This document shows, in pieces, positions 7,331-47,147 of a stretch of DNA of 64,000 nucleotides. Made by a program: the position numbers and the translations under genes. The stretch covers positions 1-64,000 of IMG/VR virus record IMGVR_UViG_3300037804_000222; one strand, 5' to 3'. Below the pieces are notes generated by a model, which was given only the letters and a program-made list of their open reading frames with translations, ran no database searches and had not been told where the DNA came from. Source of the stretch: a virus. Position 1 is the stretch's first letter. Every line of letters begins with the position of its first letter.

Positions 7331-9832
7331 ATGGCAAGAAATAAAATACAAGGAGCAGGATTATTAGCTGGGCCTATTCAGAGTCAGGCATATGTACCAC
7401 TTCCATATGATAAAGTATTTGAAATGAATCGTTATCGTCAAGCTGAGTATGATAAGAATCAAAAAAATATTTTAGAATTTCAAAAGTCTTTATATAATAC
7501 TGCAGCCAATGTTCCTCCAGGGATGCAGGACGAAGCTTTAGAACAAGTACAACCCTTTTTAAATAGTATTGGGCAGCAAATAGATGCTGCGGGAGGAGAT
7601 TTAGCTAAAGTAAATACTGGAAATATTATGGGGCAGTTCTATAAAAGTCTTGCCAGCGGAGAGTTAGGGCATTTATCTAGAGCAGGAGCTCAATATCAGG
7701 CAGCTCAAAAAGATATAAGTGATAATACTGAACTATTTATGAAGGGTAAAGGAGGGTATGAACCTGGGGTTGGTACTGCGGCTTTATCTCAAGCTAGTAA
7801 AAATTATCAAGAGCAGTATGATGCCTATTTACAAGATCCTTTAAATAACCCGCTTCCTAAATTTACTACTCCTGATATATATCCTTTTGTAGATGTAGCT
7901 AAAAAATCTAGAGAAATAGTTAAGGAAATGGATCCTACAAAAATTGCTGCACTAACAAATCAAATTTTTGCAGGATACAATAATAAAGGAGAGGCTGTAT
8001 ATCAGACATTAAATAATAAAGGAAAAGTTATTCAAGAAAGTACTACATTAAGTCCAGAACAAATTAGAAAGGTATCTAATGTAGCACTGCAGACAGACGA
8101 GCAAGTACAAGCTTATTATAATAATAGATATATGCTATCTGGTACAAAAGCTCCTGAAAACTTTGATCCTGCTACATATGAATATACTGCAGATGCAAAA
8201 ACAAATGAAGGATTACAAAATCAATACTCTGAGCAATATCAAAACTATGTAAATGCTTATGCTCCTTTAGGTACAACAGATCCCCAACAATTAGCTCAAG
8301 CTAATCAAGCTGCTACAGAGGCTACATATAGAGATGTGTGGAAAGACCAAAGAATGAATAATATAGGAGTAGCAAGTGGTAATATATTTAGACAATCTGA
8401 AACTGCATATACAGGAGTGCCTGATAGTGCGGAATTGACTGGAACTCCTCTTAGTGCGGAAGACCAGATTCCATATTTAGTAGGAGATAGTCCTTTCTTA
8501 CCTATTGATAAAAGTACTTCTGAAACAGTAGGAAGTGAAATTTTAAATTTAGATGCTCAAATTTCAGAGCAAGAAGCTTTATTAGATGCTACAGATTCAG
8601 GTACTGTTGAATATAGTACTCATGAATTAGGATTAAATGATCTTAAAACTAGAAGAAATGATTTACTAGTAGCTGCTGGAGAAAAGAGTAAAGCAATGAT
8701 TGAAGATAAAGCTGCTAAATCTATCTGGTGGAGCGATGATACGTTTTCTAAGTCTATGCAAAGCTATTATAAAAATATAAAAAAGGTAAAAAGTAATAAA
8801 GGAGCTCTAAAGGGTGTAAATCAAGAGCAATTTAATAAAAAGGCTCAGATATTATCTGCCATTCCTGGATTAACTTCAATTGATTTATTACCTACTACTG
8901 CAGATCAAATAGAACAACTTAAAAAATTAACTCCTGAAAATTATGGTATTTTAAGCGAAGCTTTTAAAGAAGGAGAATCTATAATGCCTTATTTACAAGC
9001 TGCTCAATGGATACAAAGAAAAGCTAGACGTGCTGATGTTTTAGAAACTTATGAAACATCCTTACGCCCAGTTAAAGGTTACGGAAAAAATTCATACACA
9101 ACAAGATTAACTGATAACTTAACAGAAATGATGCATAGTGGAGATGTAGCTTATACAGATTTTTATGCAAACGAAGATGTGAAGGCCGAACCTTTAAAGG
9201 ATAAGCGACCTATAGAAACGATGCGTCTTACTCCTACATTAACAATGCTTCATGGTGCTCCTGCATATAAATTTGATTTATATGAGTATAATAAAATATC
9301 AGGAACTGCAGATATTGAGGTTGGGGGAATAGAAGAAACTAAATTTGTAAAAGGTACTAACTCAAAAGATGAAATGATTAGATACCAGGATTTAGGAATT
9401 CAATTATTAACATTAGCAAAAGAAAGTGAAGGAACAGCTGCTTCAGGTGCTTATTATAAAGACGGATCGCAAGTATTAGCAAATTCTTTTGTTCTTAGTC
9501 CTGCCCAGTTAACTGGAATTGAAACTGCAGATATGACTACAAATACGGCAGACAGTAAAGGTAATCCTTATATCGAAAGAGATATGTCAGGATTTAATAT
9601 AATTATACGACGTACTGATAAACCTGGAAATTTATCTATATTTGAATTTAGAGTAAAAAGTGGTGAACATGAAGGAAAATTGGTGGGATATGATGATCAA
9701 TATGGTAGACAAGCTATTAGAGGAGCTAGTTTAGAAGATTTAGCATATAAATATTTTATGCAAAGTGGAGAAAAATTAGATACAAGTGGTAACACAGGAG
9801 CAGATATTGTAAATTCTTACTATAATAAATAA
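7331..9832 (+). CDS. Virion / ejection cargo protein of unknown function
   Basis: An 833-residue protein not recognised at domain level. It is polar, Gln/Asn/Lys-rich in the first half and predicted mostly helical, with no signal peptide and no clear catalytic motif. It starts Met-Ala-Arg after an A-rich leader 31 nt behind the lysozyme-bearing protein. Its stop codon overlaps the ATG of the next giant gene (TAATG), so the two are likely translationally coupled. Position between a lysozyme-bearing protein and the virion RNA polymerase suggests that it is packaged in the capsid or tail and ejected with them. It could instead be a tail-chamber structural protein. Function inferred from context only. 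Confidence 0.55.
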   Translation: MARNKIQGAGLLAGPIQSQAYVPLPYDKVFEMNRYRQAEYDKNQKNILEFQKSLYNTAANVPPGMQDEALEQVQPFLNSIGQQIDAAGGDLAKVNTGNIMGQFYKSLASGELGHLSRAGAQYQAAQKDISDNTELFMKGKGGYEPGVGTAALSQASKNYQEQYDAYLQDPLNNPLPKFTTPDIYPFVDVAKKSREIVKEMDPTKIAALTNQIFAGYNNKGEAVYQTLNNKGKVIQESTTLSPEQIRKVSNVALQTDEQVQAYYNNRYMLSGTKAPENFDPATYEYTADAKTNEGLQNQYSEQYQNYVNAYAPLGTTDPQQLAQANQAATEATYRDVWKDQRMNNIGVASGNIFRQSETAYTGVPDSAELTGTPLSAEDQIPYLVGDSPFLPIDKSTSETVGSEILNLDAQISEQEALLDATDSGTVEYSTHELGLNDLKTRRNDLLVAAGEKSKAMIEDKAAKSIWWSDDTFSKSMQSYYKNIKKVKSNKGALKGVNQEQFNKKAQILSAIPGLTSIDLLPTTADQIEQLKKLTPENYGILSEAFKEGESIMPYLQAAQWIQRKARRADVLETYETSLRPVKGYGKNSYTTRLTDNLTEMMHSGDVAYTDFYANEDVKAEPLKDKRPIETMRLTPTLTMLHGAPAYKFDLYEYNKISGTADIEVGGIEETKFVKGTNSKDEMIRYQDLGIQLLTLAKESEGTAASGAYYKDGSQVLANSFVLSPAQLTGIETADMTTNTADSKGNPYIERDMSGFNIIIRRTDKPGNLSIFEFRVKSGEHEGKLVGYDDQYGRQAIRGASLEDLAYKYFMQSGEKLDTSGNTGADIVNSYYNK

Positions 9833-12800
9833 TGGCAAACGGAAATGATGAAATAGTACCCGCAGGAGTAGCTGGTCTAGAGGTATCTCAAATGCGTTTA
9901 GGAAAAGACCTACTTCCTGAAGCTGTAAAAACTCCCGAATTTACGCTTGCCCCTTCAGGAGAAGCTAGTGTAGTAGATTTAGGATTTACTCCTACAACCT
10001 TAACTCCTGATATACCTGGGTTTACTTCTGAGGAATCTAGACAGCGTGATATATATAGAGATTATGGTGTAGATGTTCGTCCAGGAGTTAACTTAGAAAG
10101 TACTGCAGCACAATTACAAAGCAAAGCAAGTAAATGGGGGAATGGAGTGGTTAAAATGTTAGGTACTGCTACAACTACATTTTTAGAACCTTTTGTAGAT
10201 GTATTTGCAGGAATTCCTTACGCCGTTGCTACAGGAAGAACTGCAGGTGTATTTGATAATCCTATAACACAATCTTTTGATAGTTTTCATGAATACCTTA
10301 GAAAAGAACTCCCCCATTTTTATTCACAAGCAGAAAAAGATTATGGCTTTTGGAAAAGTCTAGGTACTGCAAACTTTTGGTCTGATCAAGGACTACAAGG
10401 AGTTGGATTTTTAGCAGGCGCTATCGGAAGTGGTTATGCGGCAGGGGCTTCTGGAGTTATAGGAAAAAGCTCTAGAGCTATTGGTATGGGCCGAGTAAAA
10501 GCTTGGAGAAATATTGTAAATAAATGGAGAGGTTCTAACCTATCTTACACGGCTTCTGAAATAAGTAAGTTAAGAGATGCTATAGGACATGTAAATACTA
10601 CAGCACAATCTGCAAATTTATTTGGAGCAGGTTTATTTTCAGCAATTGGGGAAGCTGGTATAGAAGCTAGAGAGTCTAAACGTAGAGCCATTGAAATAAT
10701 GGGCCAACTTAGATCTGAAGGAGATCCTAGATACGTAGGGATGACTGATCAGGAGATGGATATATTATCAGATACTGCAGCAAATACAGCTTTTGGATTG
10801 AATACTTTAATTGTAGGTGGAAGTAATATATTACAATTCGGTAAAATGTTTTCTAGAGGATGGTCTCCTACCTCTACTAAATATATGAAAGGACTAATAG
10901 ACCAAAAAGCTCCTTTAAAGTATGCACTTAAAGATTTACCTAAAGGATGGCAAAGAGCTGCTCAAACAGCGGCATGGTTCAAACGCCCGTCTGTAGAAGC
11001 ATTTGAAGAATGGTCTCAAGCTGCTATTAATGTAGGGGTAGAAGATTATTTTACAGATGTGTACTCCTCCGATCCTTGGTCAGAAATGTCTGATTATATT
11101 GAAGGAGGTATGGGAATAATGGGAAGCCTTTTAGAAGGATATGTAGAAGCCCCTCAAACAAAAGAGGGACAGCAAGCTATATTCTTAGGGGCCTTACTAG
11201 GTAAGCTTGGGGAAGTAGGCTCTTCTTTAAGAGAAGAAGGAGTTACATCCAGACAAGAATGGGTTAAAACATATGAAAGAACTAAAGATCTTGTTACTAA
11301 ACTAAATGGATTAGATCCTAATGGAACTCTTGCTAAATTATTAAAAGCACACGCCCAAATACAAAAGTCTCAAGGAAGAATGGACAAGCACCTAGAAGCA
11401 GGCGATGTATTTTCTTATAAAAATGAAGAGTCAAGAGCATTATTTTCCCTTATAGATACATATATAGAAGCGGGTCGTGTAGAAGATCTTAAAGCTTTTG
11501 TAGGTTCTTTAGAGACCCTTACAAATGAGGAGTTTAAAGAGGCTATGGGAATACCTGAAGACATAAAGATTAAAGATGTTTCTGAACAGGTAAGACAAAT
11601 AAAAGATAAAATAGAATTCATAGAAAAAGAAAAACCTAAAGTAGATAAATTTATTTTAGGAGCTAAGAATTTAGATGATTTCCAAAAGGCAATAGTAGGA
11701 GAAGCTATTAGATACTATAGTTATATGGCAGATACCCTGGACACAAGAAGAGCGAGTCTTAGCCAGGAAATATCTGAATTAAGTAATGGTAATATTAATT
11801 TCGATTCATTATTAGGATTAGATATAAGTAGTGTAGAACTTAAATCAGCTCTTGCTGACATGTTAACTAATACTAATAAAGATAATAAAGTAACAGAGAT
11901 TAATAAAAATGAGTTTGCTCCTTTATTGGAGGATATAGGTATGGTGGAAGCTTTACGCCAAGAGTATATAAAACTTGTAAATGAAGTAGTTAATAAAGAA
12001 TTAAAACCTTCTGATTTAAAAGGAGTTGATAAACAAGAGGCTAAAACTAAAACTGAATCGGAGACTGAGGCTGAAGAAGTAAGAGATGAAATATTACAAG
12101 AAGAAGATGATGCTTTAGCAGAATCTAAAGAGCAAGATATAGCAGAAGAAACTAAATTGCGACGAGAGCAGCAAGGAACTAAACGAGAAAGAAAACTTGC
12201 AGCTCAAGCTAAAGAAGAAGAGTTACCTTTAGTAGAGCAATTAGAAAAAGCACTTACTATAACTCCTGAAGAAAAAGAGCAGGCCTTAAAAGATATAGCA
12301 AAAAGTACGAAATCTAAATTTAAAGCGCTTGCTAAAGAATTAGGTATTCCTATGTCTGAAGATGTTGAAAATCTTTTAAGTGCTCAAGACGCAGAAATTG
12401 AAAGATTAATTTCTTTAGAAGAGCGCGGCGTAGATATAGAAGCTACAGAAGAAACTCCTATAGGTGTACTATTATCTCATCCTAATGCGTCCGTACAAGT
12501 ACGGTTTATGGGCCAAGAAGGATTATTATTTAGAGACACTGAGACTGGAGAAATTATTTTCGAAACTCAAGCTGGAGAAGAATATGTACTGGGACAAAAT
12601 ATAAATGAGAATACATTATCTGAGTTTGGTGTAGAGGCTTTAGAAAGTCAGCATGAGGCTGCAGGAATTCGTATTATAGCCGATGGTAGAACGTTTGAAA
12701 TAAATGGAGAGTACTATAACAATCTATTTATAAATCCTCTATCTGCTATTGATCCGTTTATCTTTAGACAGGACCAACCTGGATATGTTCCTAAACGAGT

Positions 12801-15417
12801 AACGTTGTTTGATTCTAACGGTAAAAAAGTTACATTTGTTAATCCTTTTATTGTACAAGAAATATCTAGACTAATAACTCTAATAGAAGTTATTAAGAAA
12901 GAAGCTCAATTAGAATTACTAGATACAAAAGGAGATCAAGTATTTGAATTCGAAGGTAAGAAGTATTATATAGAAGATACTGTAGAGCAACGATATTCTA
13001 CAGCATTTGAAAGAAAGCAAGGATTCCCTGAAGTTATTGAAACTCCAGTATCTATAGTTTATAATGAAAAATTAAATAAACTAAGAAGTCCTGCTAAAAT
13101 AGCTCAAGTATTAAAAGCAAGAGATGCACATATTGAGAATTATGTGCAGAACAAAATTAATAAATATAAAGAAGAGTATTATGAAGACGTTTTCGGAAAA
13201 AGATCTGATGCCAATACTGCCGCTAGAACTGAAGAGGAAGTTAAACAAGACGCCTCGGAATCAACAAGCGAGCCTCTTAGCGCAGAGAGTATTGGAGCTG
13301 AACAAACTGCTCCAGACAAAACAGACGCCCAAGCCAACGCCAAACCAAAAGTAGAGGAAATAGAACGTGGGGCTGAAACTACTGTTGAGTCAGAGGAACG
13401 AGAGGATGAAAGTCCTTTCCATGACAATACTGTAAGTAATGAAGTACCAACTGATGAGAGTCCTCAAGTTACTGCTGAAGAAACAGAAGTAGCTGACTTA
13501 GGGGAGACTAGAGAGGCTGTAGTACATTCTAGCGAGCTTAATATAGATGTTCCTAATAATAATGATGTAGATATATCTAATGAAGCAGCAAACGCTAAAG
13601 ATTCTTCTATTACAGAAGAAATACAACCACTTAAAACAATACTTTCACTTGCTTGGAAATCTTTAAATCATCCTTGGGAGTCTGGAGAAATAAGCTCCTT
13701 CAACGAAAGATTAGTTAGTTTATTAGAAGGAAATGATACCACTGAATTCGGTAAGCTTAAAAAAGACGGGACCGTTAAAGGATTTGATGTAGTATTTAAG
13801 ATAGATCTAAATGATCCTAACCTAACAAAGGTTGCGGGAATGGAAGCTATTTTAAATAAAGTAAAAAATAAGAAATCTTTAACGCAAGCAGAATTAGATA
13901 AGCTCCCTATAAAAGCTCTTATACAAGTGCCTAATGCAAAATCTAGTACAGGTATAAGTCAATTTCAAACTTATGTGCACCTACCTTCTTATATAGAGCA
14001 ACATATTAAAGAGAAAGAGCATGAAGAAGCTAGACGATTATTAGCTGACTTAAGAAAAACAGTGTATACAAATTATGTAAAAGGTATAGAGTCCAGAAGT
14101 GTTATTACAGATATGACAGGAGGACATTTAAATAACGTAAACAAAACGGCTAAAAATAATATCAATACAGTATTAAATTTACGTAGACCAGGTAATCCAA
14201 TTGTTCCGCAATTTATATTTGCTCGTAATGGGAACTATATAAATGAACACGGAGAAGTAGATACAGATTTACAATTTCTATCTGTTAAACCTAAATTAGA
14301 TGAGGAAGGTAATGCTATTTCTAATAACGACGGAGCTGTATATGTAAAAGTACCTATGAATAATGGTGAGATATTTCCATTAAGAGTATTTACAAGCGAC
14401 TTAAATAAAGATTTAGCAGCATTAGTATACCAACTATATGCACAGGTGTTAAAAGGGGATAGTTTGAATTCTGAAATATCTAGATATGAATTACTTCAAA
14501 ATTCTGAACAAGAAATCTATAAAGATCTTGCAAAAATATTAGATGAAATAAAAGAAGCAGAGGCTCCTACATATAATCAAATATTAGATATACTTGTATA
14601 TAAAGGTAAGAAAACAATAAATAGTAAAGCTCCTACACTTCATTATTCTAACGGTACTTTATATTTAGGAGATAAAACATATACTGCTAAAGAATGGGGA
14701 ACTCAAAAAGATGAGATTATAGAATACTTAATGGGTAACATGCGTTCTCATGTTAATGTAGGGTATATGAATAGTAAAACTCAAAATGCATATAATATGT
14801 TTTTAACTAAACATAAATTAGTATATACTAATGCTTATGCTAATAAAGATACTGGTTCTATATTCGTACAACCTACTGTTAGATTTTCTCCTATAAATGC
14901 TCCAAGAGGAACTGCAGCACCTTTGCCAGGGCCTTCTCCAGTGGTAAAACCCGAAGCACCCGTAGCTGAAAAAGAATCTAAGAAGCCAATTCAGCCTAAA
15001 ACTGAAGGAGTGGAAACTATGGATCTTTCTGATTTACCTGCAGATATGCAAGCAGATGCTATGGCGGCATTAGAAGCAATGCAAGCAGAGATGGCTGGTC
15101 TTACTGGTGCAACAGAAACAGATCTACAAAAAGATCAAGAGCTAATTGATGCGGGGCTAGGAAATATAGTCCCTACTTATAGTAAACTAGCCTTAAAGCT
15201 TAAAGAGGGTACTGTAATTACAGGAAAGGAATTGAAAGAATTACAAGCCGAATCTGGTTTAGAACAAAAACTTCCTGTAAATTTGCAAAATGAAGAAGGA
15301 AATATGTCTTCAGAGGAAACGATAGAATGGGGAGACCCTAGTATGTTTGGAGATCCTATGAGTACATTTAAAAGTGAGGATATAGATAATAGTATCAATA
15401 ATTTAGAATGCGACTAG
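9832..15417 (+). CDS. Giant virion cargo protein upstream of RNA polymerase
   Basis: An 1861-residue protein. Residues about 90-220 are hydrophobic, with segments such as VGFLAGAIGSGYAAGASG that could form a membrane-active region. Residues about 500-850 are strongly charged, with long Lys/Glu stretches likely to be helical or coiled coil. Residues about 1110-1250 are an acidic, low-complexity linker. The C-terminal part looks globular. No enzymatic motif was recognised. The start overlaps the preceding stop, and the stop is separated by a single base from the RNA polymerase gene, so the three are probably produced together. In crAss-like phages proteins at this position are virion components thought to be delivered with the polymerase; its specific role here is inferred. 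Confidence 0.55.
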   Translation: MANGNDEIVPAGVAGLEVSQMRLGKDLLPEAVKTPEFTLAPSGEASVVDLGFTPTTLTPDIPGFTSEESRQRDIYRDYGVDVRPGVNLESTAAQLQSKASKWGNGVVKMLGTATTTFLEPFVDVFAGIPYAVATGRTAGVFDNPITQSFDSFHEYLRKELPHFYSQAEKDYGFWKSLGTANFWSDQGLQGVGFLAGAIGSGYAAGASGVIGKSSRAIGMGRVKAWRNIVNKWRGSNLSYTASEISKLRDAIGHVNTTAQSANLFGAGLFSAIGEAGIEARESKRRAIEIMGQLRSEGDPRYVGMTDQEMDILSDTAANTAFGLNTLIVGGSNILQFGKMFSRGWSPTSTKYMKGLIDQKAPLKYALKDLPKGWQRAAQTAAWFKRPSVEAFEEWSQAAINVGVEDYFTDVYSSDPWSEMSDYIEGGMGIMGSLLEGYVEAPQTKEGQQAIFLGALLGKLGEVGSSLREEGVTSRQEWVKTYERTKDLVTKLNGLDPNGTLAKLLKAHAQIQKSQGRMDKHLEAGDVFSYKNEESRALFSLIDTYIEAGRVEDLKAFVGSLETLTNEEFKEAMGIPEDIKIKDVSEQVRQIKDKIEFIEKEKPKVDKFILGAKNLDDFQKAIVGEAIRYYSYMADTLDTRRASLSQEISELSNGNINFDSLLGLDISSVELKSALADMLTNTNKDNKVTEINKNEFAPLLEDIGMVEALRQEYIKLVNEVVNKELKPSDLKGVDKQEAKTKTESETEAEEVRDEILQEEDDALAESKEQDIAEETKLRREQQGTKRERKLAAQAKEEELPLVEQLEKALTITPEEKEQALKDIAKSTKSKFKALAKELGIPMSEDVENLLSAQDAEIERLISLEERGVDIEATEETPIGVLLSHPNASVQVRFMGQEGLLFRDTETGEIIFETQAGEEYVLGQNINENTLSEFGVEALESQHEAAGIRIIADGRTFEINGEYYNNLFINPLSAIDPFIFRQDQPGYVPKRVTLFDSNGKKVTFVNPFIVQEISRLITLIEVIKKEAQLELLDTKGDQVFEFEGKKYYIEDTVEQRYSTAFERKQGFPEVIETPVSIVYNEKLNKLRSPAKIAQVLKARDAHIENYVQNKINKYKEEYYEDVFGKRSDANTAARTEEEVKQDASESTSEPLSAESIGAEQTAPDKTDAQANAKPKVEEIERGAETTVESEEREDESPFHDNTVSNEVPTDESPQVTAEETEVADLGETREAVVHSSELNIDVPNNNDVDISNEAANAKDSSITEEIQPLKTILSLAWKSLNHPWESGEISSFNERLVSLLEGNDTTEFGKLKKDGTVKGFDVVFKIDLNDPNLTKVAGMEAILNKVKNKKSLTQAELDKLPIKALIQVPNAKSSTGISQFQTYVHLPSYIEQHIKEKEHEEARRLLADLRKTVYTNYVKGIESRSVITDMTGGHLNNVNKTAKNNINTVLNLRRPGNPIVPQFIFARNGNYINEHGEVDTDLQFLSVKPKLDEEGNAISNNDGAVYVKVPMNNGEIFPLRVFTSDLNKDLAALVYQLYAQVLKGDSLNSEISRYELLQNSEQEIYKDLAKILDEIKEAEAPTYNQILDILVYKGKKTINSKAPTLHYSNGTLYLGDKTYTAKEWGTQKDEIIEYLMGNMRSHVNVGYMNSKTQNAYNMFLTKHKLVYTNAYANKDTGSIFVQPTVRFSPINAPRGTAAPLPGPSPVVKPEAPVAEKESKKPIQPKTEGVETMDLSDLPADMQADAMAALEAMQAEMAGLTGATETDLQKDQELIDAGLGNIVPTYSKLALKLKEGTVITGKELKELQAESGLEQKLPVNLQNEEGNMSSEETIEWGDPSMFGDPMSTFKSEDIDNSINNLECD

Positions 15418-15418
15418 A

Positions 15419-18400
15419 ATGGCTTGTAATATAAACAGAAATGATAAAGGTATTGTTACTGGTGTAACTACAGACTCTGGAGAAGAGTCTGTATTGTTTA
15501 CACAGTTATCTAATTTAGTAGACAATAAACCTGAAACTGCAGTAACATTATATGCAGCTACAGATACTGAAGATTTTAAAACCTTCTTTCAAGATTCTAG
15601 ATTTGTTAATAGTTTAGGCGAACCCGCTTTAGTTGGAGAGTTCTATATGAATAACGAAGGGAGAACTTGGTGGGCTAAAGCTAGGAATTCACAAGAAGCT
15701 TTAGATAAATTTGCTTTTGGGTTAGATCGAATTTCTGGGTTAACAATTGGACAGGTAGACGATATTGTAAACTTCTTTCACGGCATGCTTATTAATAATA
15801 TCAATGATATAGAAAATATATCAGATATAGATGTTAGAAAATTACGTCCTATATTATTACAATTAGAAAATATAGTACGTAAAGATCCTCACAGAAATAA
15901 TATTGTGAAAATTCTTAAAGAGGATTTACTTAATTATGATCTTTTGAATGATAAAGGTTACCCAGGTATAAGCCAAAGTTCTAAACTCGTGGCTGCTATT
16001 AAGAATAGATTAGCTGCTGAAGGTATTATAGAGCAGCAAGAAGAAATGAAAGAAGAGGAGAAAACTTCTGGATTAAATTTAAAATCTAAAGAACTCTTTT
16101 CTCCTAAAGATAATGCACAAGCTAGTACAAAACTTTTATTCCGAGGTCTTCATGATACTTTCTATACAGGAGAGGTGATAGATGGAGTTAAAAAGAGATC
16201 TATCAGAAAAGATAAGACATTGGGAATGCCTAAATTTGTAAACTTTTCAGAAGTTTATAATTTACTTGCCCAAGAACTTACAGGTATTGTATCTGATAAG
16301 AACACTGAAGATGTTTACGAGGCATATTTAAGTAAAATTAGATCTTTAACAAAATATTATCCTTTTCTTGTAGAGCTTGAGTATAAGCTAGAAAATGCAA
16401 AAGGGAATTCTCCTACTTCCGAACAAAGAAGAACTAGATTTACAACTGCTTTTGCTTTAGAGCAACAGCCTTATTCTCAAACTCTTTATTCTGGAGAGGC
16501 TGGGAGTAGAACCTTCAAAGTAGGTAAAGCAGATGTGCAGGCTAAAGAAGAGGTGGTTAGAGAGAAATGGCAAGAAGGCTTTAAGAATATTTTAACTAAA
16601 TATAGTAGAACAGGTAAACACTTGTTTAAAGATGAGGTTGCTGTAGCAGCCGCCAGATCTTTTCAAAAGCTTTTAAAAGAATATAGACAAGCAGCTAAAG
16701 CAGATAAAACTGCATACCCAGCTCAATACATACAACAGCTATCTCAAATCTTAGACTCTGTTGGTATAGATATGTCTACAGAAGCTTTAAAATATCATAT
16801 AGATGAAGTCGCTAAAGGTAAAACAATGGCGAGTAAAGTTCTAGATACTTTTAGTAATTTAGAATTTGTATTTGGAAAGCAGGGATTATTAAAACTAGCA
16901 GATCGATATGGTAAGTATAAAGATGCTAAACGAGCGCAGCGTCCTATAGAAGATAAAAACGGTAAAGTTATTAATCTATATAAAGACGAGAAAGGTGTAT
17001 TAGCATTAGCTAAGTCTCAAGCAAAGTTTGAACTAGGATTTCATGAAAATAGTGTTTTAGGGCCCAAAGGAGATATTTATTGGCCGTTTTCAGATATAAG
17101 TTATTTATCTCAAATCATTGCACAGTTTAAGCAAGGAGATTTAAGTTATTTAGAAGCTTTAAAAGGACAAGTATATAATAAGAATTCTAAATGGTTAAAT
17201 TATTTATTGGCCGACGAAAAGAATAGAGAGCTCTTTAATAAAGAAGTATTTATGCAAATGAAAGAAGAGGATACCTATGAAGGTATTAAGTATTTCAATC
17301 TTTCAGAGCCTGATCAATTAGCTGATAGAATAAATAGAGTATTGAAAGGACATCAATTTTTAATGACTCCTGGTAACGCCCGTACTCTTTATAATATTGT
17401 AGGTACTCCGCAATACTCTTCTGGAGTTAATATAAGTTTAAAAAACGAAGAATTCACATTTGAGTATACATCAGATGAAGTGCTCAATACTTTTAAAAAC
17501 TATATCATAGATGAGCTGTCTGCAATGGAGGTTGCCTATAATCAGGTTTTTGACAACGAGAATAAGCTAAGTAAAAATAAGCAAATATTATTTTATCACT
17601 ATGATAAAAATGGTAATGAAAGAGTGGATGGGATTCCTGCAGGGAATGCATTTAAACACTATTTATTTCCTGAGCTTAATTTTGGCTCTCCTATTGCTGC
17701 TGCTTTAAAGTTATATGATCAAAACGGTAAGCCCCAACCAATTAATTCTGAAACGTTAAATAGTCCTATTATAGAAAATTTAATTAAAGCGCAATTTGAA
17801 CTTCGAGCAAAAGAACAACTAATTGAAGCTATAGATTATAATTTGGTAGGAGTAGTTACTTCAAAAAAAGACAAAGAATCTGTATTTACAAATAAACAAA
17901 TAGATATTAATGTCTTAGAAAGTGGGGAATTATATAAAAATGTTCCTGATAACTTAAAGGTGGGACGAGCAATTTCTGATTATGTATATAACAGTTTAAT
18001 AGCTAATATAGAATCTACTAAATTATTTGTAGGTAATATTGCCTTTTATAAAAGTGTAGAAGACTTTCCTAAAAGATCTAATTTATATAGTACAGGAGTA
18101 ACGCCTTTACGTATCTATAAGGATAAACAAACTAATTTATATGAAGTAAATCCTTTTTACTTACAATCTACAGTATTTGATGTGCTCAAACCTTCTGACT
18201 ATATAAGCGATGTAGAATCTTACGATGAAATCGATTTAGCAGATGCTACTACCTGGATAACCCCTACATTACGTAAACAAAGAATGAAAGGATTAGGCCA
18301 ATGGAGTGCTAAAACAGAGGCCTCATTTAACAGACTGATGGCAGGAGAATTAAACACTGAAGACGTTTTAATGCTAATGCCTCAAAAGAGTACAGCCAGA

Positions 18401-21400
18401 GGAACAGAAATAAAGAATAGTCTAAATGTGCCTTATAGAGAAAAAACTGCAGAAGTAACGCTCTGGCCAGGACTGGTAAATACTATTCAGTTACAAGATC
18501 TATATGATAAAATGACTGAAGCTGAAACTACTTGGGCGGAAGAACATAATGGACAAGAAATAGGAATGTCTGTATCTGTAGAATCTGCCGTTAAAGTTGG
18601 AGCAGGAGAAAGAACTAAAATAGACGATGATGCAGGAGCAGTACTAAATCCTGAAGAGTTTGAATTAGAATATGTAGAAAAATCCCACCAATTATATGGT
18701 AAACAACAAGATGTTAATGCCAAAGGTGTAAAAGACGGGACATTTGGTTCTCAGACTAAAATGTTAATGCTTGGAGATATTAGCGATACTGCTAAAATAG
18801 GAAGTAAATCTGGGCCTCAGTGGCTACAAGAAGTGCAAGACTTAGAAAGTGCTATATCTGAACTAGGTAAAAAAGAATTCTTTGATAGATTTGGTATCTC
18901 AGAAGATCTAGAAATAAACGAAGATAAATTCAGAAAGGAATTAATAGGAATTTTTGAAAAGGATAAGTTTAAAGATGAGGCAGTACTTCAAGGATTACAA
19001 GCAGGACTAGAATTTGATGCGATATTCCAATCTAGAAGAAAAATAATGAATAAGCTTGCAAATACTTTAAGCAAGTCAACAGTTACTTATTCTGCAAACG
19101 GTACACAGGCAGTACAAATATCTTCATTTGGATTTTTACAGAATCCACAATCTATAGCAGAGTTAGATGGAGAAGCTAAATCTAAAATTAGATGGATAAA
19201 AGATGACAACACTCCTTTAGCTCCGCCAAGAATTGTTAATGGTAAATTAGAATTAGCTCAGATATTATTACCTTATAGAGTTGTAGAAAATATTCCTGGG
19301 TGGGAAACTATGACTAATGCTGAATTAAAAGCAGCTATAGGTAAAGATGTATTATCTGTTATAGGGTATCGTATTCCTACACAGTCTCTTGCCTCTATCG
19401 ATGCTTTAGATATAGTGGGTATTTTACCTGCCGAACTTGGAGATACAGCTGTAGTATATGAAGACATTACTAGAAAAACAGGTAGTGACTTTGATATTGA
19501 TAAATTATTCATGCTTATACCACATGTGTTCTATAGTAAGAAAACTGGTAAATTAGAATTAGTAGATCCGTCTGGAAGTTCTAGAAAGTCTTTAGAAAAT
19601 AAAAGAATTCTTTTATATAAAGAGTTATTCCAATCAGTTAGTGAATACCCTAGAATTATTAAATCTATAGATACTAAGGATTTAAAAGAAGATGCTACTT
19701 ATATAGAACAATTAGCAGGAGAACAAGATAGGTTTGACGGATTAAAACTATTTAGTGGGCAATTCCAACAGGAATTAAAAAGAAGGTTTGCATTAGGAGC
19801 TATAGGCGTAGGATCTATTGCGAATTCTATTATAGATAATGTTTCCTCTCAAATAGGAAAATTAAATGTTTCTAATATTGGTATTGGGGCCACTGAAACT
19901 TTAGCCGATGGTTCCATAGTTACAAGTTTACACGAAACAAGCAGAACAGACGGTCTTTTAGTATCTGAAATCCAATCAGGGTACATGAACGCATTTGTGG
20001 ATATTGAAAAAGATCCTTATATAGCGATGTTAAATGTGAATGCTGAAACATTAAATATAACTACACTTCTAGTTAGAGCTCAAGTACCCACTAAATGGAT
20101 AAATAGATTTTTAAAGCAACCTGTTATTGTAGATTATGTACGACAAATATCTATAGACAAAAGTCCTTTATTAGATCGTAAAGTAAATCGAGGGAAGTTA
20201 ATAGAATCTTTAATATCTGAGTACTCTACAGAAAATTCTTCTGAACTAGAAGCGGGACTGTCTTTAGAAAATCCTTTAGATAATGTTAAAAATATTCTTA
20301 CAGTATCTAATTTAGAACAAGGTATATCTAAAGAAAATTTAGACTATCAAGCCGCTGTAATAGCTTACTTTGATTCTATACGTAAGACAGCTGATAAGAT
20401 ATTTGACCAAAACCTGGCCTCTAAGGTTCACACAAAAGGTGTTGGACAAGGTATGATAGAGGCGCGAATGGCCTTACAAACTAAAGAAGAAATAGAAACT
20501 AGCGATGACTATATAGAAATAGGTAACTTTAATGAGAAGTTCGCTGAGGGTACAATACTAGGAAAATACTTTGAAAATGGTCCTAAACTTTTTATAGAGC
20601 TATTTGCAGATAAATTTTTATCAGGAAGACTAGAAAGCACTGAACTAGCTATGCTTGACGCCACTAATAATAAAAACTCTAAAGATTATAGATTACGTAG
20701 AGCCATGGAGGATAGAATGTATTCTTATATGTACAGTAATCACTTTGTAGGTACGCCTGAATTAGGATCTCCAGAACAATTATTATTTGATTCTGCAACT
20801 AACAAATCTTTAGTACAAGAATTAAGAAAAATGGCTATTAAATATCCTGATAATATTTTAATTGGAAAGGATAGAGGTATTTTGAAAACTACTTTAAATA
20901 GAAATGAAGAGGGAGTTAATATGGTGCCTAGTGAAATATCGATGAGTAACGCTAAGTTCTTACCAGCTGATATTAAGAAGCTTGCTAGACAAGCATGGGA
21001 GGACGGATTAAACTCTTCTATAGAAGAAGAGCAAATATTTTACAATAAATTAGTTAAATATGCGTATCTTACGTCAGGATTTAGAAATGGATTAAAAACA
21101 TTTTATGATATAGTCCCAATTTTATGGAACGTAGAAAATAAATTTAATAACTCTGTCCAGGCTTTAGGATTAGAACAAGGAAGCATGCTTCAGGCAGGAA
21201 TAGATCAGGTTATACGACATGAATATAAAAATCCTAAGTATGCCCCTAGAATACGAAAAAGTAAAGCTGTCGTACCTATAGATAAAGCAACTGGATTATT
21301 CGGTGGTATTAAGTTATTAGGAAATGAAGCTAAAAGACACCTGCTAACTAAATTTATTACATGGTCCTATAAAGGAGAGGCAAAGCTATTTAAAAATGGT

Positions 21401-21655
21401 GGATATGAAATTGTAGAAAAAGGAGGAGAACAATATTTAAATCCTTTGTTTTATCCTGTATCTCCTTTAGGTTACCAAAGCGAAGGAGGTTTTAGAGTAG
21501 TTGAGTATAGATTTGATAAAGCTGAACCTGAGAGCATGTTTGAACAAAATAAAGTAGAAGTAAGTAAAGCAGTACAGGCTAGAATAAATAAGGCCTATGA
21601 AATGGAGTCTGCTAGAGAGCGTGTACAAGAATTTACTAAACCTGAATGTATATAA
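15419..21655 (+). CDS. Virion DNA-dependent RNA polymerase (crAss-like, DFDID motif)
   Basis: A 2078-residue single-chain RNA polymerase of the type carried in virions of crAss-like phages and related to two-barrel (RNAi-type) polymerases. Residues 1357-1361 read DFDID within KTGSDFDIDKLFML, the double-psi beta-barrel metal-binding signature whose aspartates hold catalytic Mg2+. The preceding stretch (YRIPTQSLASIDALDIV) fits the first part of the catalytic barrel. The length is close to the roughly 2200 residues known for the phi14:2 enzyme. It would be injected with the DNA and transcribe the early genes. Start ATG at 15419 is one base after the previous stop, and the next gene's ATG is one base after this stop. 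I am confident of the enzyme class; the early-transcription role is taken from relatives. Confidence 0.9.
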   Translation: MACNINRNDKGIVTGVTTDSGEESVLFTQLSNLVDNKPETAVTLYAATDTEDFKTFFQDSRFVNSLGEPALVGEFYMNNEGRTWWAKARNSQEALDKFAFGLDRISGLTIGQVDDIVNFFHGMLINNINDIENISDIDVRKLRPILLQLENIVRKDPHRNNIVKILKEDLLNYDLLNDKGYPGISQSSKLVAAIKNRLAAEGIIEQQEEMKEEEKTSGLNLKSKELFSPKDNAQASTKLLFRGLHDTFYTGEVIDGVKKRSIRKDKTLGMPKFVNFSEVYNLLAQELTGIVSDKNTEDVYEAYLSKIRSLTKYYPFLVELEYKLENAKGNSPTSEQRRTRFTTAFALEQQPYSQTLYSGEAGSRTFKVGKADVQAKEEVVREKWQEGFKNILTKYSRTGKHLFKDEVAVAAARSFQKLLKEYRQAAKADKTAYPAQYIQQLSQILDSVGIDMSTEALKYHIDEVAKGKTMASKVLDTFSNLEFVFGKQGLLKLADRYGKYKDAKRAQRPIEDKNGKVINLYKDEKGVLALAKSQAKFELGFHENSVLGPKGDIYWPFSDISYLSQIIAQFKQGDLSYLEALKGQVYNKNSKWLNYLLADEKNRELFNKEVFMQMKEEDTYEGIKYFNLSEPDQLADRINRVLKGHQFLMTPGNARTLYNIVGTPQYSSGVNISLKNEEFTFEYTSDEVLNTFKNYIIDELSAMEVAYNQVFDNENKLSKNKQILFYHYDKNGNERVDGIPAGNAFKHYLFPELNFGSPIAAALKLYDQNGKPQPINSETLNSPIIENLIKAQFELRAKEQLIEAIDYNLVGVVTSKKDKESVFTNKQIDINVLESGELYKNVPDNLKVGRAISDYVYNSLIANIESTKLFVGNIAFYKSVEDFPKRSNLYSTGVTPLRIYKDKQTNLYEVNPFYLQSTVFDVLKPSDYISDVESYDEIDLADATTWITPTLRKQRMKGLGQWSAKTEASFNRLMAGELNTEDVLMLMPQKSTARGTEIKNSLNVPYREKTAEVTLWPGLVNTIQLQDLYDKMTEAETTWAEEHNGQEIGMSVSVESAVKVGAGERTKIDDDAGAVLNPEEFELEYVEKSHQLYGKQQDVNAKGVKDGTFGSQTKMLMLGDISDTAKIGSKSGPQWLQEVQDLESAISELGKKEFFDRFGISEDLEINEDKFRKELIGIFEKDKFKDEAVLQGLQAGLEFDAIFQSRRKIMNKLANTLSKSTVTYSANGTQAVQISSFGFLQNPQSIAELDGEAKSKIRWIKDDNTPLAPPRIVNGKLELAQILLPYRVVENIPGWETMTNAELKAAIGKDVLSVIGYRIPTQSLASIDALDIVGILPAELGDTAVVYEDITRKTGSDFDIDKLFMLIPHVFYSKKTGKLELVDPSGSSRKSLENKRILLYKELFQSVSEYPRIIKSIDTKDLKEDATYIEQLAGEQDRFDGLKLFSGQFQQELKRRFALGAIGVGSIANSIIDNVSSQIGKLNVSNIGIGATETLADGSIVTSLHETSRTDGLLVSEIQSGYMNAFVDIEKDPYIAMLNVNAETLNITTLLVRAQVPTKWINRFLKQPVIVDYVRQISIDKSPLLDRKVNRGKLIESLISEYSTENSSELEAGLSLENPLDNVKNILTVSNLEQGISKENLDYQAAVIAYFDSIRKTADKIFDQNLASKVHTKGVGQGMIEARMALQTKEEIETSDDYIEIGNFNEKFAEGTILGKYFENGPKLFIELFADKFLSGRLESTELAMLDATNNKNSKDYRLRRAMEDRMYSYMYSNHFVGTPELGSPEQLLFDSATNKSLVQELRKMAIKYPDNILIGKDRGILKTTLNRNEEGVNMVPSEISMSNAKFLPADIKKLARQAWEDGLNSSIEEEQIFYNKLVKYAYLTSGFRNGLKTFYDIVPILWNVENKFNNSVQALGLEQGSMLQAGIDQVIRHEYKNPKYAPRIRKSKAVVPIDKATGLFGGIKLLGNEAKRHLLTKFITWSYKGEAKLFKNGGYEIVEKGGEQYLNPLFYPVSPLGYQSEGGFRVVEYRFDKAEPESMFEQNKVEVSKAVQARINKAYEMESARERVQEFTKPECI

Positions 21656-21656
21656 T

Positions 21657-24600
21657 ATGTCGTGCGAATTAAAAAATAGTTTAATTAAAGAATTCACTGA
21701 AAAGTTTGATGCTTCTGAAGGGCAAAGAATTGGGGAAAGTCTTTATAATCATATATTCACTCCTTCTTTTAAAAGATGGTTTGGAGATTTTGAAGCAGGT
21801 AAAGCTACTAAAGGTAGAGCTGATATGAAAAACGGTTTGCCTACTAAAGAAGTTATATTAGAGTATTTAGATAAACAAGGATTAAAAGCTGAAAAAGATA
21901 TACCTTCTAGTTATATCAATTTAATATCTAAATATACACCAGTCAATCCTACAAGTGTAAGAGAAGATTTAATACAACAAACTGAAGCCTTATTAAAAAA
22001 GGTGGCTAAAGAGGTGGGAGATTATGCCCAGACTAAAACTCAAAAAGGCTCTCCAATGCAGCGTCAAAGAAAGCAGAAAGCAGCTTTTAGAACTAAAATA
22101 GAATCTCTGCTTACTAAACTAAGAACTTATAAAACTGAAGCAGGCCTTATTGAATATGTGTCTCAAGTTAAGCAGGACATTGCAGGTATTAAAAAAGCAT
22201 TAAAACTAGCTTCTGGTAAAGATGTTAACACTCATTATGAGTATTTAAAAAGACTTAGGTATTTTGCAGCTATTGAAGATGTAGTCTATGTTATTGATAA
22301 AAATCCTAAACTTAAAAAGGAATTTGCTAAAAATAAAATTGACTATTCGCATATAGCTGCTGATATACAAAATCTTAAAAAAGAGTTATCTGAAAAGTTT
22401 ATAGATGTATTAGGAGAAAAATGGGGAGAAATCCCAGGAAAAATGACTAGGCTTGCTAGAGAAAAATATAGAAGAGGATACTCCTATAATGAAGCTTGGA
22501 GAAAAAGCAATCCTGGTAAATCAAAAGCAGATTTTAAAAAGATGCAGGAAGCTCATATAGATAAAATGATAGAGCAAAATGAAGTTGATTTACAGCAAGC
22601 TGAAAAAGATCATATTAAAAAAGCTATGCTATCTGTATCTGATGATATTAGTTGGATGGATGCCTACTTTGGTAACCCTAGAGATATTACAGATGATCTT
22701 ATACAAATAGCAGTGGAGCTATTAGATAAGGCAGATTATCTTGTAATGCGTGAGACTATAAATAAAACAAAAGAGGCTCATGATTTATTTGAAAGATTTA
22801 AAGTAGGAAGAAATACAAAGAATATGGTTAAACTGTATGAGGATCTTCTTGCTTTTGATGAAAAAGGTAAACCCACAAATTATTTAGTTGGCCCTATTAA
22901 AGGAGAGTACTTTAAAAAACTATCAGATCTGTATCAAGAAAAACGCCTTGCAATTGAAGAGCACGGAGAAACCAGCGAGCAAGCTATAAACGCTAAAAGA
23001 AAAGAAAAAGTATGGATCAATGCTAATTCTATAAATGGGAAGCGTGGAAAACCTAGAGCATCTTGGCAGGACCCTAAATATAAGTACTTTGAAGATAAGA
23101 GTAATAAAGGGCAAGCCACTTATGATATGTATTGGTTTTTACGAGAGCTGGCAGAGAAGAGAGATAAAAATTATCTAGGCCATGGAGCGGGATTAAGATT
23201 ACCCGCTATAGAGAAAAGTATATTAGAACGTACATTTGAAAATAATATAGTAGATACTGCATCTAGAACTTTTGGAGATACTTTTAGAGTGAGAGCCACT
23301 GATGTAGAATTACATAATGAAAATCCTGACGAAGTAGAAGCTGAAGGATGGCGAGCTATGAAAGAAAAGATTAAACGTACTATTTATGTTAATCTTGATG
23401 AACAGCAAAAAATAAGTAGAAGTATTCCTACATATTTTAGAGATCGAAGTAAAGTAAAACCAGGGGACCAGTCTTATGATTTGGTTAGTATGTATTTACT
23501 TGATTACTGGGGATCTATAAATTATAAAGAAAAATACAGTATACTTCCTGAATTAGAAATATTCAAGGAATCTATAGCGACAAGAAAAACAGTTCAAAAG
23601 ACTTTTACTAAACAAACTCAAGTTGCTAAAAAATTAGGGATGGAAGAAAATGTTCCTGCTGTAATTAAAGGGGAGGAGTCTAACGCTTATAAAGCAATAC
23701 AAACTATACTTGAAGATAGAGTTTATGGTATTAAATCTATAGGTAATGCTACAACTAATAAGATAGCCCAATCTTTGATGTCCTTTACAGGGGATTTATT
23801 TTTAATAGGAAATTACTTTTCTGCGGGGGCTTCTTTGTTTCAAGGTAAAACTATGAACTTCATAAAAGCAGTTGGGGGAATAGATTTTAATTTAAAAGAT
23901 GTTACAAGAGGGGAGCTTAAATATGATGCAGATGTAATTAATATGATAGGAGATATAGGGGCACTTGTTCCAACTTCTAGAACAAATTTACTTGGAGAAA
24001 TATTTGAGTCTACACAAGATTGGAGTGCAGTAGCTAAAAAGTTTGCAGGAACCACAAAAGCTAGTCAATTAGCTAATAAAAATACTTTACACTTTTTAAC
24101 AGGATTAGCTGAAAACTATATCCAGAATACTTTAATGTACTCATTTTTAAATGGGATTAAAGTAAAAAATGAAAAAGGAGAGTATATAAATACTGCAGGA
24201 GAAGTAGTTAAAGATAAAAAAGACGCGATGTCTTTAGATGAAGCGTATGAAAAAGATAAATCAGGTAAAAGACTAGTGATGAGAAAAGATGCAGACAGTA
24301 TAGAATTAAATACTGGGCAAACTTATTCTTTAAAAGCAAAAGATTTAGAAAGTACGGAGTTTACGGTGAAGAGATATTTGAATCACCTTAATAGAAGACT
24401 TAACGGTAACTATGCTTTGAATAACCAAGCAATGGCTCAAAGAGCTGCTATGGGTAAATTAGCATTTATGTTAAGAAAGTGGCTAGAGCCTGGAATAAGA
24501 AGAAGGTATAGAGGTATAGGTACTGCAATGCCTGGTATAAATATGATTCCAAAAGAGCATTTAACAGAGGAAGATATATATTATAATAGAGAAATTCAAG

Positions 24601-25154
24601 ATCTTGATGAGGGTACATATACCACTGTATTAAGATTTTTAGGAGGACTAAAGCAAGATACTAGAAAATTTAGTATGGAACTTACCACTGAAAGATGGCA
24701 TGATCTCTCCTTAAGAGAGCAAGCTAATATTAAAGAAATGGTAACAGAATTCACTGCTTTAATTCTTTCTTCTATGGGAGCTGCTCTTTTATACGGTGCC
24801 GCTCAAGACGAACCAGATGAAAAACAAAAATGGGCTTTATATATGGGGGCCTTTTATACAAGAAGATTATACTCTGAATTATTTTTCTATACAAACCCTA
24901 GAGAGGCCTTAAGAATTTTAAAAAGTCCTGCAGCTTCTTTAAGTTTAATTCAAAATGGTATGGAAATATTTGATCAATTTACAACTGATGCATGGTCTGT
25001 AGCTACTGGAGGACAAATGGAAAGATACCAATCAGGTAAAAGAAAAGGAGAACTTAAGTTTAAAAAAGAAATTAACGATATAATTCCAATTTCGTATCAG
25101 CTCAAAAGAGATGTAGAAGATACAATAGGATGGTTATATAAACCTGTAGATTAA
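21657..25154 (+). CDS. Giant virion cargo protein downstream of RNA polymerase
   Basis: An 1165-residue protein of unrecognised family. The N-terminal 600 residues are Lys/Glu-rich and helical. About residues 700-760 contain a hydrophobic run (GDLFLIGNYFSAGASLFQG) and a second one lies near residue 1060 (LILSSMGAALLYGAA), both compatible with membrane contact during ejection. A basic motif, KLAFMLRKWLEPGIRRRYRG, lies near residue 945. I chose the ATG at 21657, one base after the polymerase stop, over an in-frame ATG 20 codons earlier inside the polymerase gene. Its location immediately after the virion RNA polymerase suggests a co-packaged partner or ejection protein. A direct transcriptional role is possible but unsupported by motifs. 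Confidence 0.55.
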   Translation: MSCELKNSLIKEFTEKFDASEGQRIGESLYNHIFTPSFKRWFGDFEAGKATKGRADMKNGLPTKEVILEYLDKQGLKAEKDIPSSYINLISKYTPVNPTSVREDLIQQTEALLKKVAKEVGDYAQTKTQKGSPMQRQRKQKAAFRTKIESLLTKLRTYKTEAGLIEYVSQVKQDIAGIKKALKLASGKDVNTHYEYLKRLRYFAAIEDVVYVIDKNPKLKKEFAKNKIDYSHIAADIQNLKKELSEKFIDVLGEKWGEIPGKMTRLAREKYRRGYSYNEAWRKSNPGKSKADFKKMQEAHIDKMIEQNEVDLQQAEKDHIKKAMLSVSDDISWMDAYFGNPRDITDDLIQIAVELLDKADYLVMRETINKTKEAHDLFERFKVGRNTKNMVKLYEDLLAFDEKGKPTNYLVGPIKGEYFKKLSDLYQEKRLAIEEHGETSEQAINAKRKEKVWINANSINGKRGKPRASWQDPKYKYFEDKSNKGQATYDMYWFLRELAEKRDKNYLGHGAGLRLPAIEKSILERTFENNIVDTASRTFGDTFRVRATDVELHNENPDEVEAEGWRAMKEKIKRTIYVNLDEQQKISRSIPTYFRDRSKVKPGDQSYDLVSMYLLDYWGSINYKEKYSILPELEIFKESIATRKTVQKTFTKQTQVAKKLGMEENVPAVIKGEESNAYKAIQTILEDRVYGIKSIGNATTNKIAQSLMSFTGDLFLIGNYFSAGASLFQGKTMNFIKAVGGIDFNLKDVTRGELKYDADVINMIGDIGALVPTSRTNLLGEIFESTQDWSAVAKKFAGTTKASQLANKNTLHFLTGLAENYIQNTLMYSFLNGIKVKNEKGEYINTAGEVVKDKKDAMSLDEAYEKDKSGKRLVMRKDADSIELNTGQTYSLKAKDLESTEFTVKRYLNHLNRRLNGNYALNNQAMAQRAAMGKLAFMLRKWLEPGIRRRYRGIGTAMPGINMIPKEHLTEEDIYYNREIQDLDEGTYTTVLRFLGGLKQDTRKFSMELTTERWHDLSLREQANIKEMVTEFTALILSSMGAALLYGAAQDEPDEKQKWALYMGAFYTRRLYSELFFYTNPREALRILKSPAASLSLIQNGMEIFDQFTTDAWSVATGGQMERYQSGKRKGELKFKKEINDIIPISYQLKRDVEDTIGWLYKPVD

Positions 25155-26845: not shown

Positions 26846-26856
26846 TGAAATTAATT

Positions 26857-46827: not shown

Positions 46828-47049
46828 CTATGCCCATATGATTCCGCCATCTGCGATGGTGCTAATCTCAGGCACTTCAGTGCCTTTAGCAAATTCGTCG
46901 CTACAGTCGCCTTCTAGGCGGATGAAGCAAGTATTTGCATTGGTAGAGACCACTCGGTCTTTACCAAGAATTTTGCGAGTTTCGAACCCGCTTAAACCTA
47001 CGACAGTTTGACCGTCTTTAACTTGAACCCAAAAACATTTAGTTTTCAT
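46828..47049 (-). CDS. Small independently terminated early protein
   Basis: A 73-residue beta-rich protein starting MKTKCFWVQVKDGQTVVGLS, of unknown function. It has no recognised motif. A canonical terminator follows its stop and a GGGCA/TGCCC hairpin lies in its leader, so it is probably expressed as a single-gene unit. That suggests an abundant early product, possibly acting on the host, but the target is unknown. Confidence 0.55.
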   Translation of the reverse strand: MKTKCFWVQVKDGQTVVGLSGFETRKILGKDRVVSTNANTCFIRLEGDCSDEFAKGTEVPEISTIADGGIIWA

Positions 47050-47147
47050 AATGTAGCAAAATTTAGTTAGGGGGCATTAGTGCCCAAAACTTAGAGGGGG
47101 TGGGGTTATATAAGTGGTCTACTCTCTCATTTCCGTAAACAAAATTT

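What the first reader, a model, noticed from the sequence alone, without database searches (positions are those of the whole stretch)
15419..21655. Intact single-chain virion RNA polymerase embedded in giant cargo genes
The DFDID catalytic motif is present at residues 1357-1361 in a full-length protein. It is flanked by two uncharacterised giant proteins (1861 and 1165 residues) with hydrophobic segments and joined by 0-1 base gaps, implying stoichiometric production and co-packaging. The functions of these partners remain undefined.
Basis: partly seen in the sequence, partly recalled or inferred. Interest (0 to 1): 0.6.

Follow-up and report, generated by a model that had tools for sequence, protein, structure and literature searches.

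The report
Cysteine-coupled cargo train around phage polymerase
This crAss-like phage carries its RNA polymerase between two giant cargo proteins that are almost free of cysteine except for single cysteines at the ends that face each other, a pattern kept in about 100 related phages and lost where the genes are fused, which suggests that the proteins are joined end to end into one chain for injection.

Summary
An intact 2078-aa ORF (15419-21655) carries DFDID at 1357-1361 and matches the phi14:2 virion RNA polymerase (PDB 6vr4, E=1.5e-84). Its 1861-aa and 1165-aa neighbours are relatives of phi14:2 g067/g065 and crAss001 gp47/gp49, already detected in virions. As a polymerase locus it is a new member of a known family; the claimed hydrophobic segments are weak. 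The surprise is elsewhere. The 1861-aa protein has one cysteine (1860); the polymerase has two (3 and 2077); the 1165-aa protein has one (3). Across 101 non-redundant loci, terminal Cys occur on g067 C-termini 28/30, polymerase N-termini 43/43, polymerase C-termini 75/78 and g065 N-termini 82/84, but on g067 N-termini 0/56 and g065 C-termini 0/84. Internal Cys are 30-120 times rarer than in neighbouring ORFs. Fusions generally lose the junction pair; a 5005-aa fusion of all three has no Cys. Extra links (517-1281 aa) carry Cys at both ends. I propose that disulfides couple the cargo head to tail into one chain, threaded through the tail and released by reduction in the host. The pattern is shown; the bond is inferred (confidence 0.65). 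I found no mention of it in the papers held.

The parts
9832..15417 (+). front cap protein, 1861 aa (phi14:2 g067 / crAss001 gp47 family); C-terminal Cys only
   Evidence: profile homology; 1 Cys in the whole protein, at 1860; C1860 invariant in A3
15409..15411 (+). codon of Cys1860, proposed coupler to the RNA polymerase N-terminus
15419..21655 (+). virion RNA polymerase, 2078 aa (phi14:2 gp66 family)
   Evidence: PDB 6vr4 E=1.5e-84; invariant DFDxD neighbourhood
15425..15427 (+). codon of Cys3 of the polymerase, proposed coupler to the front cap
19487..19501 (+). DFDID catalytic motif (residues 1357-1361)
   Evidence: DFDxD in 78 of 83 relatives spanning the site
21647..21649 (+). codon of Cys2077 of the polymerase, proposed coupler to the rear cap
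   Evidence: C2077 is an invariant column of A1
21657..25154 (+). rear cap protein, 1165 aa (phi14:2 g065 / crAss001 gp49 family); N-terminal Cys only
   Evidence: profile homology; AF2 pTM 0.79 with residues 1-58 mostly below pLDDT 50; Foldseek to phi14:2 g065 E=4.8e-50
21663..21665 (+). codon of Cys3 of the rear cap, proposed coupler to the polymerase C-terminus
   Evidence: C3 invariant in A2 and A4
7331..9832 (+). 833-aa Cys-free protein at the position of crAss001 cargo C2 / phi14:2 g068
   Evidence: position and Cys count; no sequence match outside the closest relatives
4090..7299 (+). 1069-aa Cys-free protein at the position of cargo C1
   Evidence: position only, Cys count; no family match
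13..4065 (+). muzzle (tail-tip) protein
   Evidence: PF25731 1.2e-146

Best explanation
The polymerase is the middle link of an end-to-end chain of giant virion cargo proteins: front cap (g067 type, 1861 aa), RNA polymerase (2078 aa), rear cap (g065 type, 1165 aa). Shown: the three are almost free of cysteine, and their few cysteines sit at the very ends that face each other; genes fused in nature generally lack the pair at that junction, while an extra carriage or a real split has a pair. Inferred: in the oxidising virion the facing cysteines form disulfides (front-cap C1860 to polymerase C3; polymerase C2077 to rear-cap C3), giving one chain of 5104 residues that is packed and threaded in fixed order through the narrow tail. 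Internal cysteines are avoided because the chain must unfold and refold. The reducing host cytoplasm then breaks the couplers and frees the polymerase to transcribe early genes.
For: Polymerase identity. Cys census of window, phi14:2, crAss001, phi17:2 and Lbo-JY46. 101 non-redundant loci: facing ends 28/30, 43/43, 75/78 and 82/84; outer ends 0/56 and 0/84; internal Cys 0.05-0.2 per 1000 aa against 6.2 in other ORFs. Of the misses, one is a start-codon choice in the window, one a frameshifted fragment, two have Cys 12-15 residues from the end, and one (L070) proved to be a polymerase-g065 fusion. Unselected test: proteins upstream of the polymerase that the g067 profile does not recognise have a Cys in the last 10 aa in 19/20. 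Fusions: 25 of 28 front-cap/polymerase fusions have no Cys within 250 aa of the projected junction; polymerase-rear-cap fusion L040 has one Cys, at 7; triple fusion L075 (5005 aa) has none. Fused/separate state changes at least 6 times on the polymerase tree. The Cys follows the end, not the alignment: 27/29 polymerases with >300-aa C-terminal extensions and 27/27 rear caps with >400-aa N-terminal extensions keep it terminal. Extra links with Cys only at both ends: L024 1167 aa, L070 1281 aa, phi17:2 gp038 517 aa, L103 843 aa, L104 759 aa. In L113 a split polymerase has a new Cys pair at the split. Rear-cap N-terminus predicted disordered. The crAss001 virion contains other disulfides (PMC10172136).
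Against: No bond has been observed; free thiols would give the same sequences. Three fusions have a Cys within 250 aa of the junction (L003, L079, L074), two of them in TAG-recoded lineages with relaxed Cys depletion. L036 front cap has its Cys 31 from the end; L101 has none on either side; in L077 and L037 split polymerases the pattern is incomplete. Some polymerases have 1-3 internal Cys (crAss001 gp50 at 1334). Cys avoidance alone is general to ejected proteins (N4 gp50 and T7 gp15/gp16 have none), so only the terminal pairs are special. Most non-isolate loci are metagenomic contigs with first-ATG starts.
Confidence: 0.65

Rival explanations
1. The terminal cysteines are independent tags: each helps its own protein bind a packaging factor, the portal or a metal, and the proteins are not bonded to each other.
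For: Cys sit on flexible-looking ends; T7 gp14 also has a lone Cys at position 2; a protein at the C1 position in Lbo-JY46 and Fpv3 has a lone Cys at 5 without an obvious partner.
Against: Outer ends of the caps never carry Cys (0/56, 0/84); fusions lose the junction pair and the triple fusion has none at all, which a per-protein tag would not predict.
Confidence: 0.15
2. The facing ends do pair, but through a shared metal ion, a thioester or another thiol chemistry, or through homotypic disulfides between copies of the same protein.
For: Sequence cannot tell which bond forms; 6 or more copies of each protein per virion have been estimated for crAss001 (PMC10172136).
Against: One Cys per end is few for metal binding; homotypic bonds would not explain why fusion removes both partners of exactly one junction.
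Confidence: 0.1
3. Ordinary cargo: the three proteins are co-expressed and co-packaged non-covalently, with Cys avoided because ejected proteins must unfold; terminal Cys are incidental.
For: Cys-free N4 gp50-52 and T7 gp15/gp16; adjacent genes in the window.
Against: Terminal Cys at 93-100% of facing ends and 0% of outer ends in 101 loci cannot be incidental; the pattern holds where the genes are not adjacent (crAss001).
Confidence: 0.07
4. The three proteins are subunits of one multi-subunit RNA polymerase, as database annotation suggests ('putative RNA-polymerase subunit').
For: Annotation in crAss001 and relatives; fusions in many lineages.
Against: The phi14:2 large protein is itself described as the active polymerase with both DPBB domains in one chain (PMC7886860). 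g067 and g065 relatives occur in phi17:2 and Lbo-JY46 where no polymerase of this family was found by profile in the train proteins; the Epsilon group is said to lack the transcription block (PMC7886860), although a weak HHpred match is reported for an Epsilon phage (PMC11054128).
Confidence: 0.03

Closest known systems
phi14:2 virion RNA polymerase gp66 (PDB 6vr4) with gp67 and gp65
   Same: same three families, same gene order, downstream of the muzzle gene; same Cys positions (g067 1797 of 1797; g066 3 and 2179 of 2180; g065 3)
   Different: about 25-27% identity; the window front cap is barely recognisable against g067 (3.5e-22 only with an unfiltered profile)
crAss001 cargo proteins gp47, gp50, gp49
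   Same: virion cargo by MS; terminal Cys pattern (gp47 2339 of 2341; gp50 5 and 2404 of 2412; gp49 5)
   Different: gp49/gp50 genes on the strand opposite to gp47; one internal Cys in gp50
N4 gp50 virion RNA polymerase and T7-type ejection proteins
   Same: giant Cys-poor proteins ejected through a narrow tail
   Different: no terminal Cys pairs in N4 gp50-52 or T7 gp15/gp16; N4 polymerase belongs to the single-subunit T7-like fold, not the DFDxD fold (established knowledge)
Polyvalent proteins of phages (PMC5512222)
   Same: multidomain giant proteins thought to be delivered with DNA; the rear-cap model has weak structural matches to them (E 1e-4 to 5e-4) and one rear cap carries an ART-PolyVal domain (5.8e-10)
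   Different: matches are weak (TM about 0.25); here separate proteins carry facing terminal Cys

Membership tests
crAss-like virion RNA polymerase (phi14:2 gp66 family) | sequence homology over most of the length to 6vr4 | tested here: met
   E=1.5e-84, residues 227-1379 and 1389-1948
crAss-like virion RNA polymerase (phi14:2 gp66 family) | DFDxD catalytic motif in a conserved GSDFDxDK context | tested here: met
   DFDID 1357-1361; columns 1355-1359, 1361 and 1362 invariant
crAss-like virion RNA polymerase (phi14:2 gp66 family) | packaged in the virion and active on early promoters | not testable with these tools
   no virion or assay; inferred from homology
Crassvirales | signature MCP, portal, TerL, muzzle | tested here: met
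   PF23898 4.6e-132, phrog_6547 8.7e-143, phrog_6681 1.9e-120, PF25731 1.2e-146
Crassvirus cargo block (front cap, polymerase, rear cap) | all three families contiguous after muzzle and C1/C2 positions | tested here: met
End-to-end thiol-coupled chain | Cys on both facing ends, none on outer ends | tested here: met
End-to-end thiol-coupled chain | junction Cys lost when the two genes are fused | tested here: met
   25 of 28 fusions clean within 250 aa; L040 and L075 clean
End-to-end thiol-coupled chain | actual disulfide in the virion, reduced in the host | not testable with these tools
   needs non-reducing gel or MS
Membrane-channel ejection protein | predicted transmembrane segment | tested here: not met
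   no 19-residue window at Kyte-Doolittle 1.6 or above in the three proteins
Polyvalent proteins | shared fold with large polyvalent protein domains | tested here: inconclusive
   weak Foldseek matches; no Pfam LPD match

The most novel reading that the evidence does not exclude
Crassvirales and some related phages package a modular cargo train: an N-terminal cap protein, a variable number of carriages (usually the RNA polymerase; elsewhere a helicase-polymerase or unknown proteins) and a C-terminal cap, coupled head to tail by single disulfides, pulled through the tail as one polypeptide-like thread and uncoupled by cytoplasmic reduction.
Probability: 0.55. Interest if true: 0.88.

Novelty: new variant of a known kind. 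Interest (0 to 1): 0.75.

Why it matters
How giant folded enzymes leave a virion through a channel narrower than themselves, in order and in fixed ratio, is an open question (stated for N4 in PMC12633501 and for crAss001 in PMC10172136). A head-to-tail thiol coupling rule gives order, stoichiometry and a release trigger at once, covers the most abundant human gut phages, and can be tested with one non-reducing gel or with non-reduced virion mass spectrometry. It also gives a sequence signature for recognising unknown injected proteins next to the caps.

Tried and rejected
Partner proteins as polymerase subunits: rejected as the main role because caps occur where no polymerase of this family is found. 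Translational-coupling or nucleotide artefact: rejected because the pattern holds for genes on opposite strands, both Cys codons are used (218 TGT, 25 TGC), and the Cys follows the protein end over extensions of hundreds of residues. A shared N-terminal packaging motif on the polymerase: its first 137 aa have no convincing match among phages (best E 0.9). Function of the front cap by fold: AF2 model all-alpha, pLDDT 64, no PDB match; solved-structure profile searches gave only coiled-coil and designed-helix noise. Rear cap against PDB: no match. Intron-split polymerases (L013, L056, L125, L129) lack Cys at the break, as expected if spliced into one protein. My first count listed L070 as an exception; a direct profile search showed it to be a polymerase-rear-cap fusion.

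Full report
WHAT WAS CLAIMED AND WHAT IS THERE. The window lies in a 90,771-base virus record. The ORF 15419-21655 is intact, 2078 aa, with DFDID at 1357-1361. phmmer finds the phi14:2 virion RNA polymerase 6vr4 at E=1.5e-84 over two stretches, 227-1379 and 1389-1948. The phage is a crassvirus: muzzle PF25731 1.2e-146, major capsid PF23898 4.6e-132, auxiliary capsid PF25650, portal and terminase. The 1861-aa and 1165-aa neighbours belong to the families of phi14:2 g067 and g065. Those are annotated as virion proteins from MS/MS in phi14:2, and their relatives were found in crAss001 virions (gp47, gp49, gp50; PMC10172136). Its 'hydrophobic segments' are not convincing, and short gene gaps do not show stoichiometry.

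THE UNEXPECTED FEATURE. A cysteine census gave: window 1861-aa protein, one Cys, at 1860; polymerase, two, at 3 and 2077; 1165-aa protein, one, at 3. phi14:2: g067 one at 1797 of 1797; g066 two, 3 and 2179 of 2180; g065 one at 3. crAss001: gp47 one at 2339 of 2341; gp49 one at 5; gp50 at 5, 1334 and 2404 of 2412. In the family alignments C1860, C2077 and C3 of the rear cap are among the few invariant columns.

SCALE. Using the polymerase alignment I fetched 80 IMG/VR loci, and more with the cap alignments. After removing near copies, 101 loci remained. Terminal Cys (within 10 residues): front cap N 0/56, C 28/30; polymerase N 43/43, C 75/78; rear cap N 82/84, C 0/84. Internal Cys per 1000 aa: 0.05, 0.18 and 0.14, against 6.21 in other ORFs of the same loci. 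The only Cys are those at the expected ends in 25/28 front caps, 32/38 polymerases and 65/78 rear caps. Of 119 other ORFs of at least 600 aa, 20 had only terminal Cys; from their position 19 are cap or link proteins of the same chain (the g067 and g065 profiles had missed the caps), and one is not explained (L010 13664-15688). Where the g067 profile failed, the protein upstream of the polymerase, chosen by position alone, had a Cys in the last 10 residues in 19/20.

FUSIONS, SPLITS AND EXTRA LINKS. Of 28 front-cap/polymerase fusions, 25 have no Cys within 250 aa of the projected junction; the three others are L003 and L079 (TAG-recoded, relaxed depletion) and L074. L046 is 5322 aa with one Cys at 5321; L035 is 4392 aa with one at 4391; Fpv3 is 4287 aa with one at 4286. 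The polymerase-rear-cap fusion L040 keeps only Cys 7; L075, all three in 5005 aa, has none and retains DFDVD. Fused and separate states interchange at least 6 times on the polymerase tree. In L113 a polymerase broken at profile position 1262/1272 has Cys at both new ends, and the second part carries a helicase domain. Breaks due to introns have no Cys. Extra proteins with Cys only at both ends lie between the caps: L024 1167 aa, L070 1281 aa, and the middle proteins of phi17:2 (517 aa), L103 (843 aa) and L104 (759 aa), which are homologous to one another. In Lbo-JY46 the caps follow each other directly, C1552 then C4. The Cys follows the end of the polypeptide whatever its length: 27/29 polymerases with C-terminal extensions above 300 aa and 27/27 rear caps with N-terminal extensions above 400 aa.

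CONTROLS. N4 gp50 (3500 aa), gp51, gp52 and T7 gp15, gp16 have no Cys at all; T7 gp14 has one at position 2. So Cys avoidance goes with ejection, and the terminal pairs are what is special here. A small unrelated gene that sits between polymerase and rear cap in several loci has scattered Cys, not terminal ones.

MECHANISM. Shown by sequence: positions, pairing logic, loss on fusion. Inferred: disulfides form in the virion, where others are known (PMC10172136), couple the cargo in the order front cap, polymerase, rear cap, and are reduced in the host. The rear-cap N-terminus (1-58) is predicted disordered while the rest folds well (pTM 0.79), as a flexible coupler should be. The parts conserved most widely are the N-terminal region of the front cap and the C-terminal region of the rear cap, the two ends of the train; the middle varies. 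Rear-cap structure resembles phi14:2 g065 (4.8e-50), phi17:2 gp036 (5.5e-15) and, weakly, polyvalent proteins (1e-4 to 5e-4); one rear cap carries ART-PolyVal and the Lbo-JY46 one a GNAT domain. Which end leads through the tail is not known.

LITERATURE. Searches of the held library found no mention of this pattern; Bayfield et al., Yutin et al., the Crassvirales review, the N4 polymerase preprint, the ejection-protein review, the Epsilon and Zeta papers and the polyvalent-protein paper contain no statement on cysteine in these proteins. Drobysheva et al. 2021, the phi14:2 polymerase paper, is not held, so priority is not settled. [quoted passage not shown] by sequence the polymerase homologue is gp50.

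LIMITS. Starts are first-ATG choices; contigs are mostly metagenomic; the sample was drawn mainly by polymerase similarity; exceptions are listed above. No chemistry was observed.

Noticed in passing
L113 2661-9509: Second half of a split crass polymerase is preceded by an SF1 helicase-like domain (AAA_30 5.4e-14, UvrD_C_2) in the same 2282-aa protein, with Cys at 4 and 2282.
   Followed up: partly
L010 13664-15688; L137 29912-31708: A Cys-poor protein at the C1-cargo position in Lbo-JY46 and Fpv3 starts MKKKC (lone Cys at 5) without an obvious partner end.
   Followed up: no
L009 11623-14151, L002 6876-8138, L077 13191-16676, L037 17538-19259: Proteins at or resembling the C1-cargo position carry a Cys pair 7-9 residues apart (390/398, 369/378, 353/360, 122/129), perhaps an intramolecular bond.
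   Followed up: no
L047 8017-8520, L056 15581-16075, L059 16444-16941, L065 14285-14776: A small gene resembling ferritin-like proteins by eye lies between polymerase and rear cap in several loci; its Cys are not terminal. Family not tested.
   Followed up: no
L079, L084, L095, L003: Phages read with TAG=Q have many more internal Cys in the giant proteins but mostly keep the terminal ones (L095 polymerase Cys lies 15 residues from the end).
   Followed up: partly
window 46968-47063 (-): ARAGORN calls a 96-base tRNA-SeC-like gene with anticodon TCA; could be an opal suppressor or a false call.
   Followed up: no
window 40255-40391 (-): Rfam tRNA match spread over 137 bases (33.4 bits), which may hold an intron; ARAGORN does not call it.
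   Followed up: no
window 25838-29235 (-): rIIA- and rIIB-like genes directly behind the cargo block on the opposite strand (phrog_612 2.5e-67, phrog_609 3.4e-45).
   Followed up: no
L031, L034, L045, L055, L070: Five polymerase relatives that span the catalytic site lack a plain DFDxD by pattern search; intein, intron, variation or loss not examined.
   Followed up: no
L010 24421-32667: Rear cap of the cyanophage Lbo-JY46 is 2748 aa with an N-terminal GNAT domain and an HELAH zinc-protease-like motif; Cys only at 4.
   Followed up: partly
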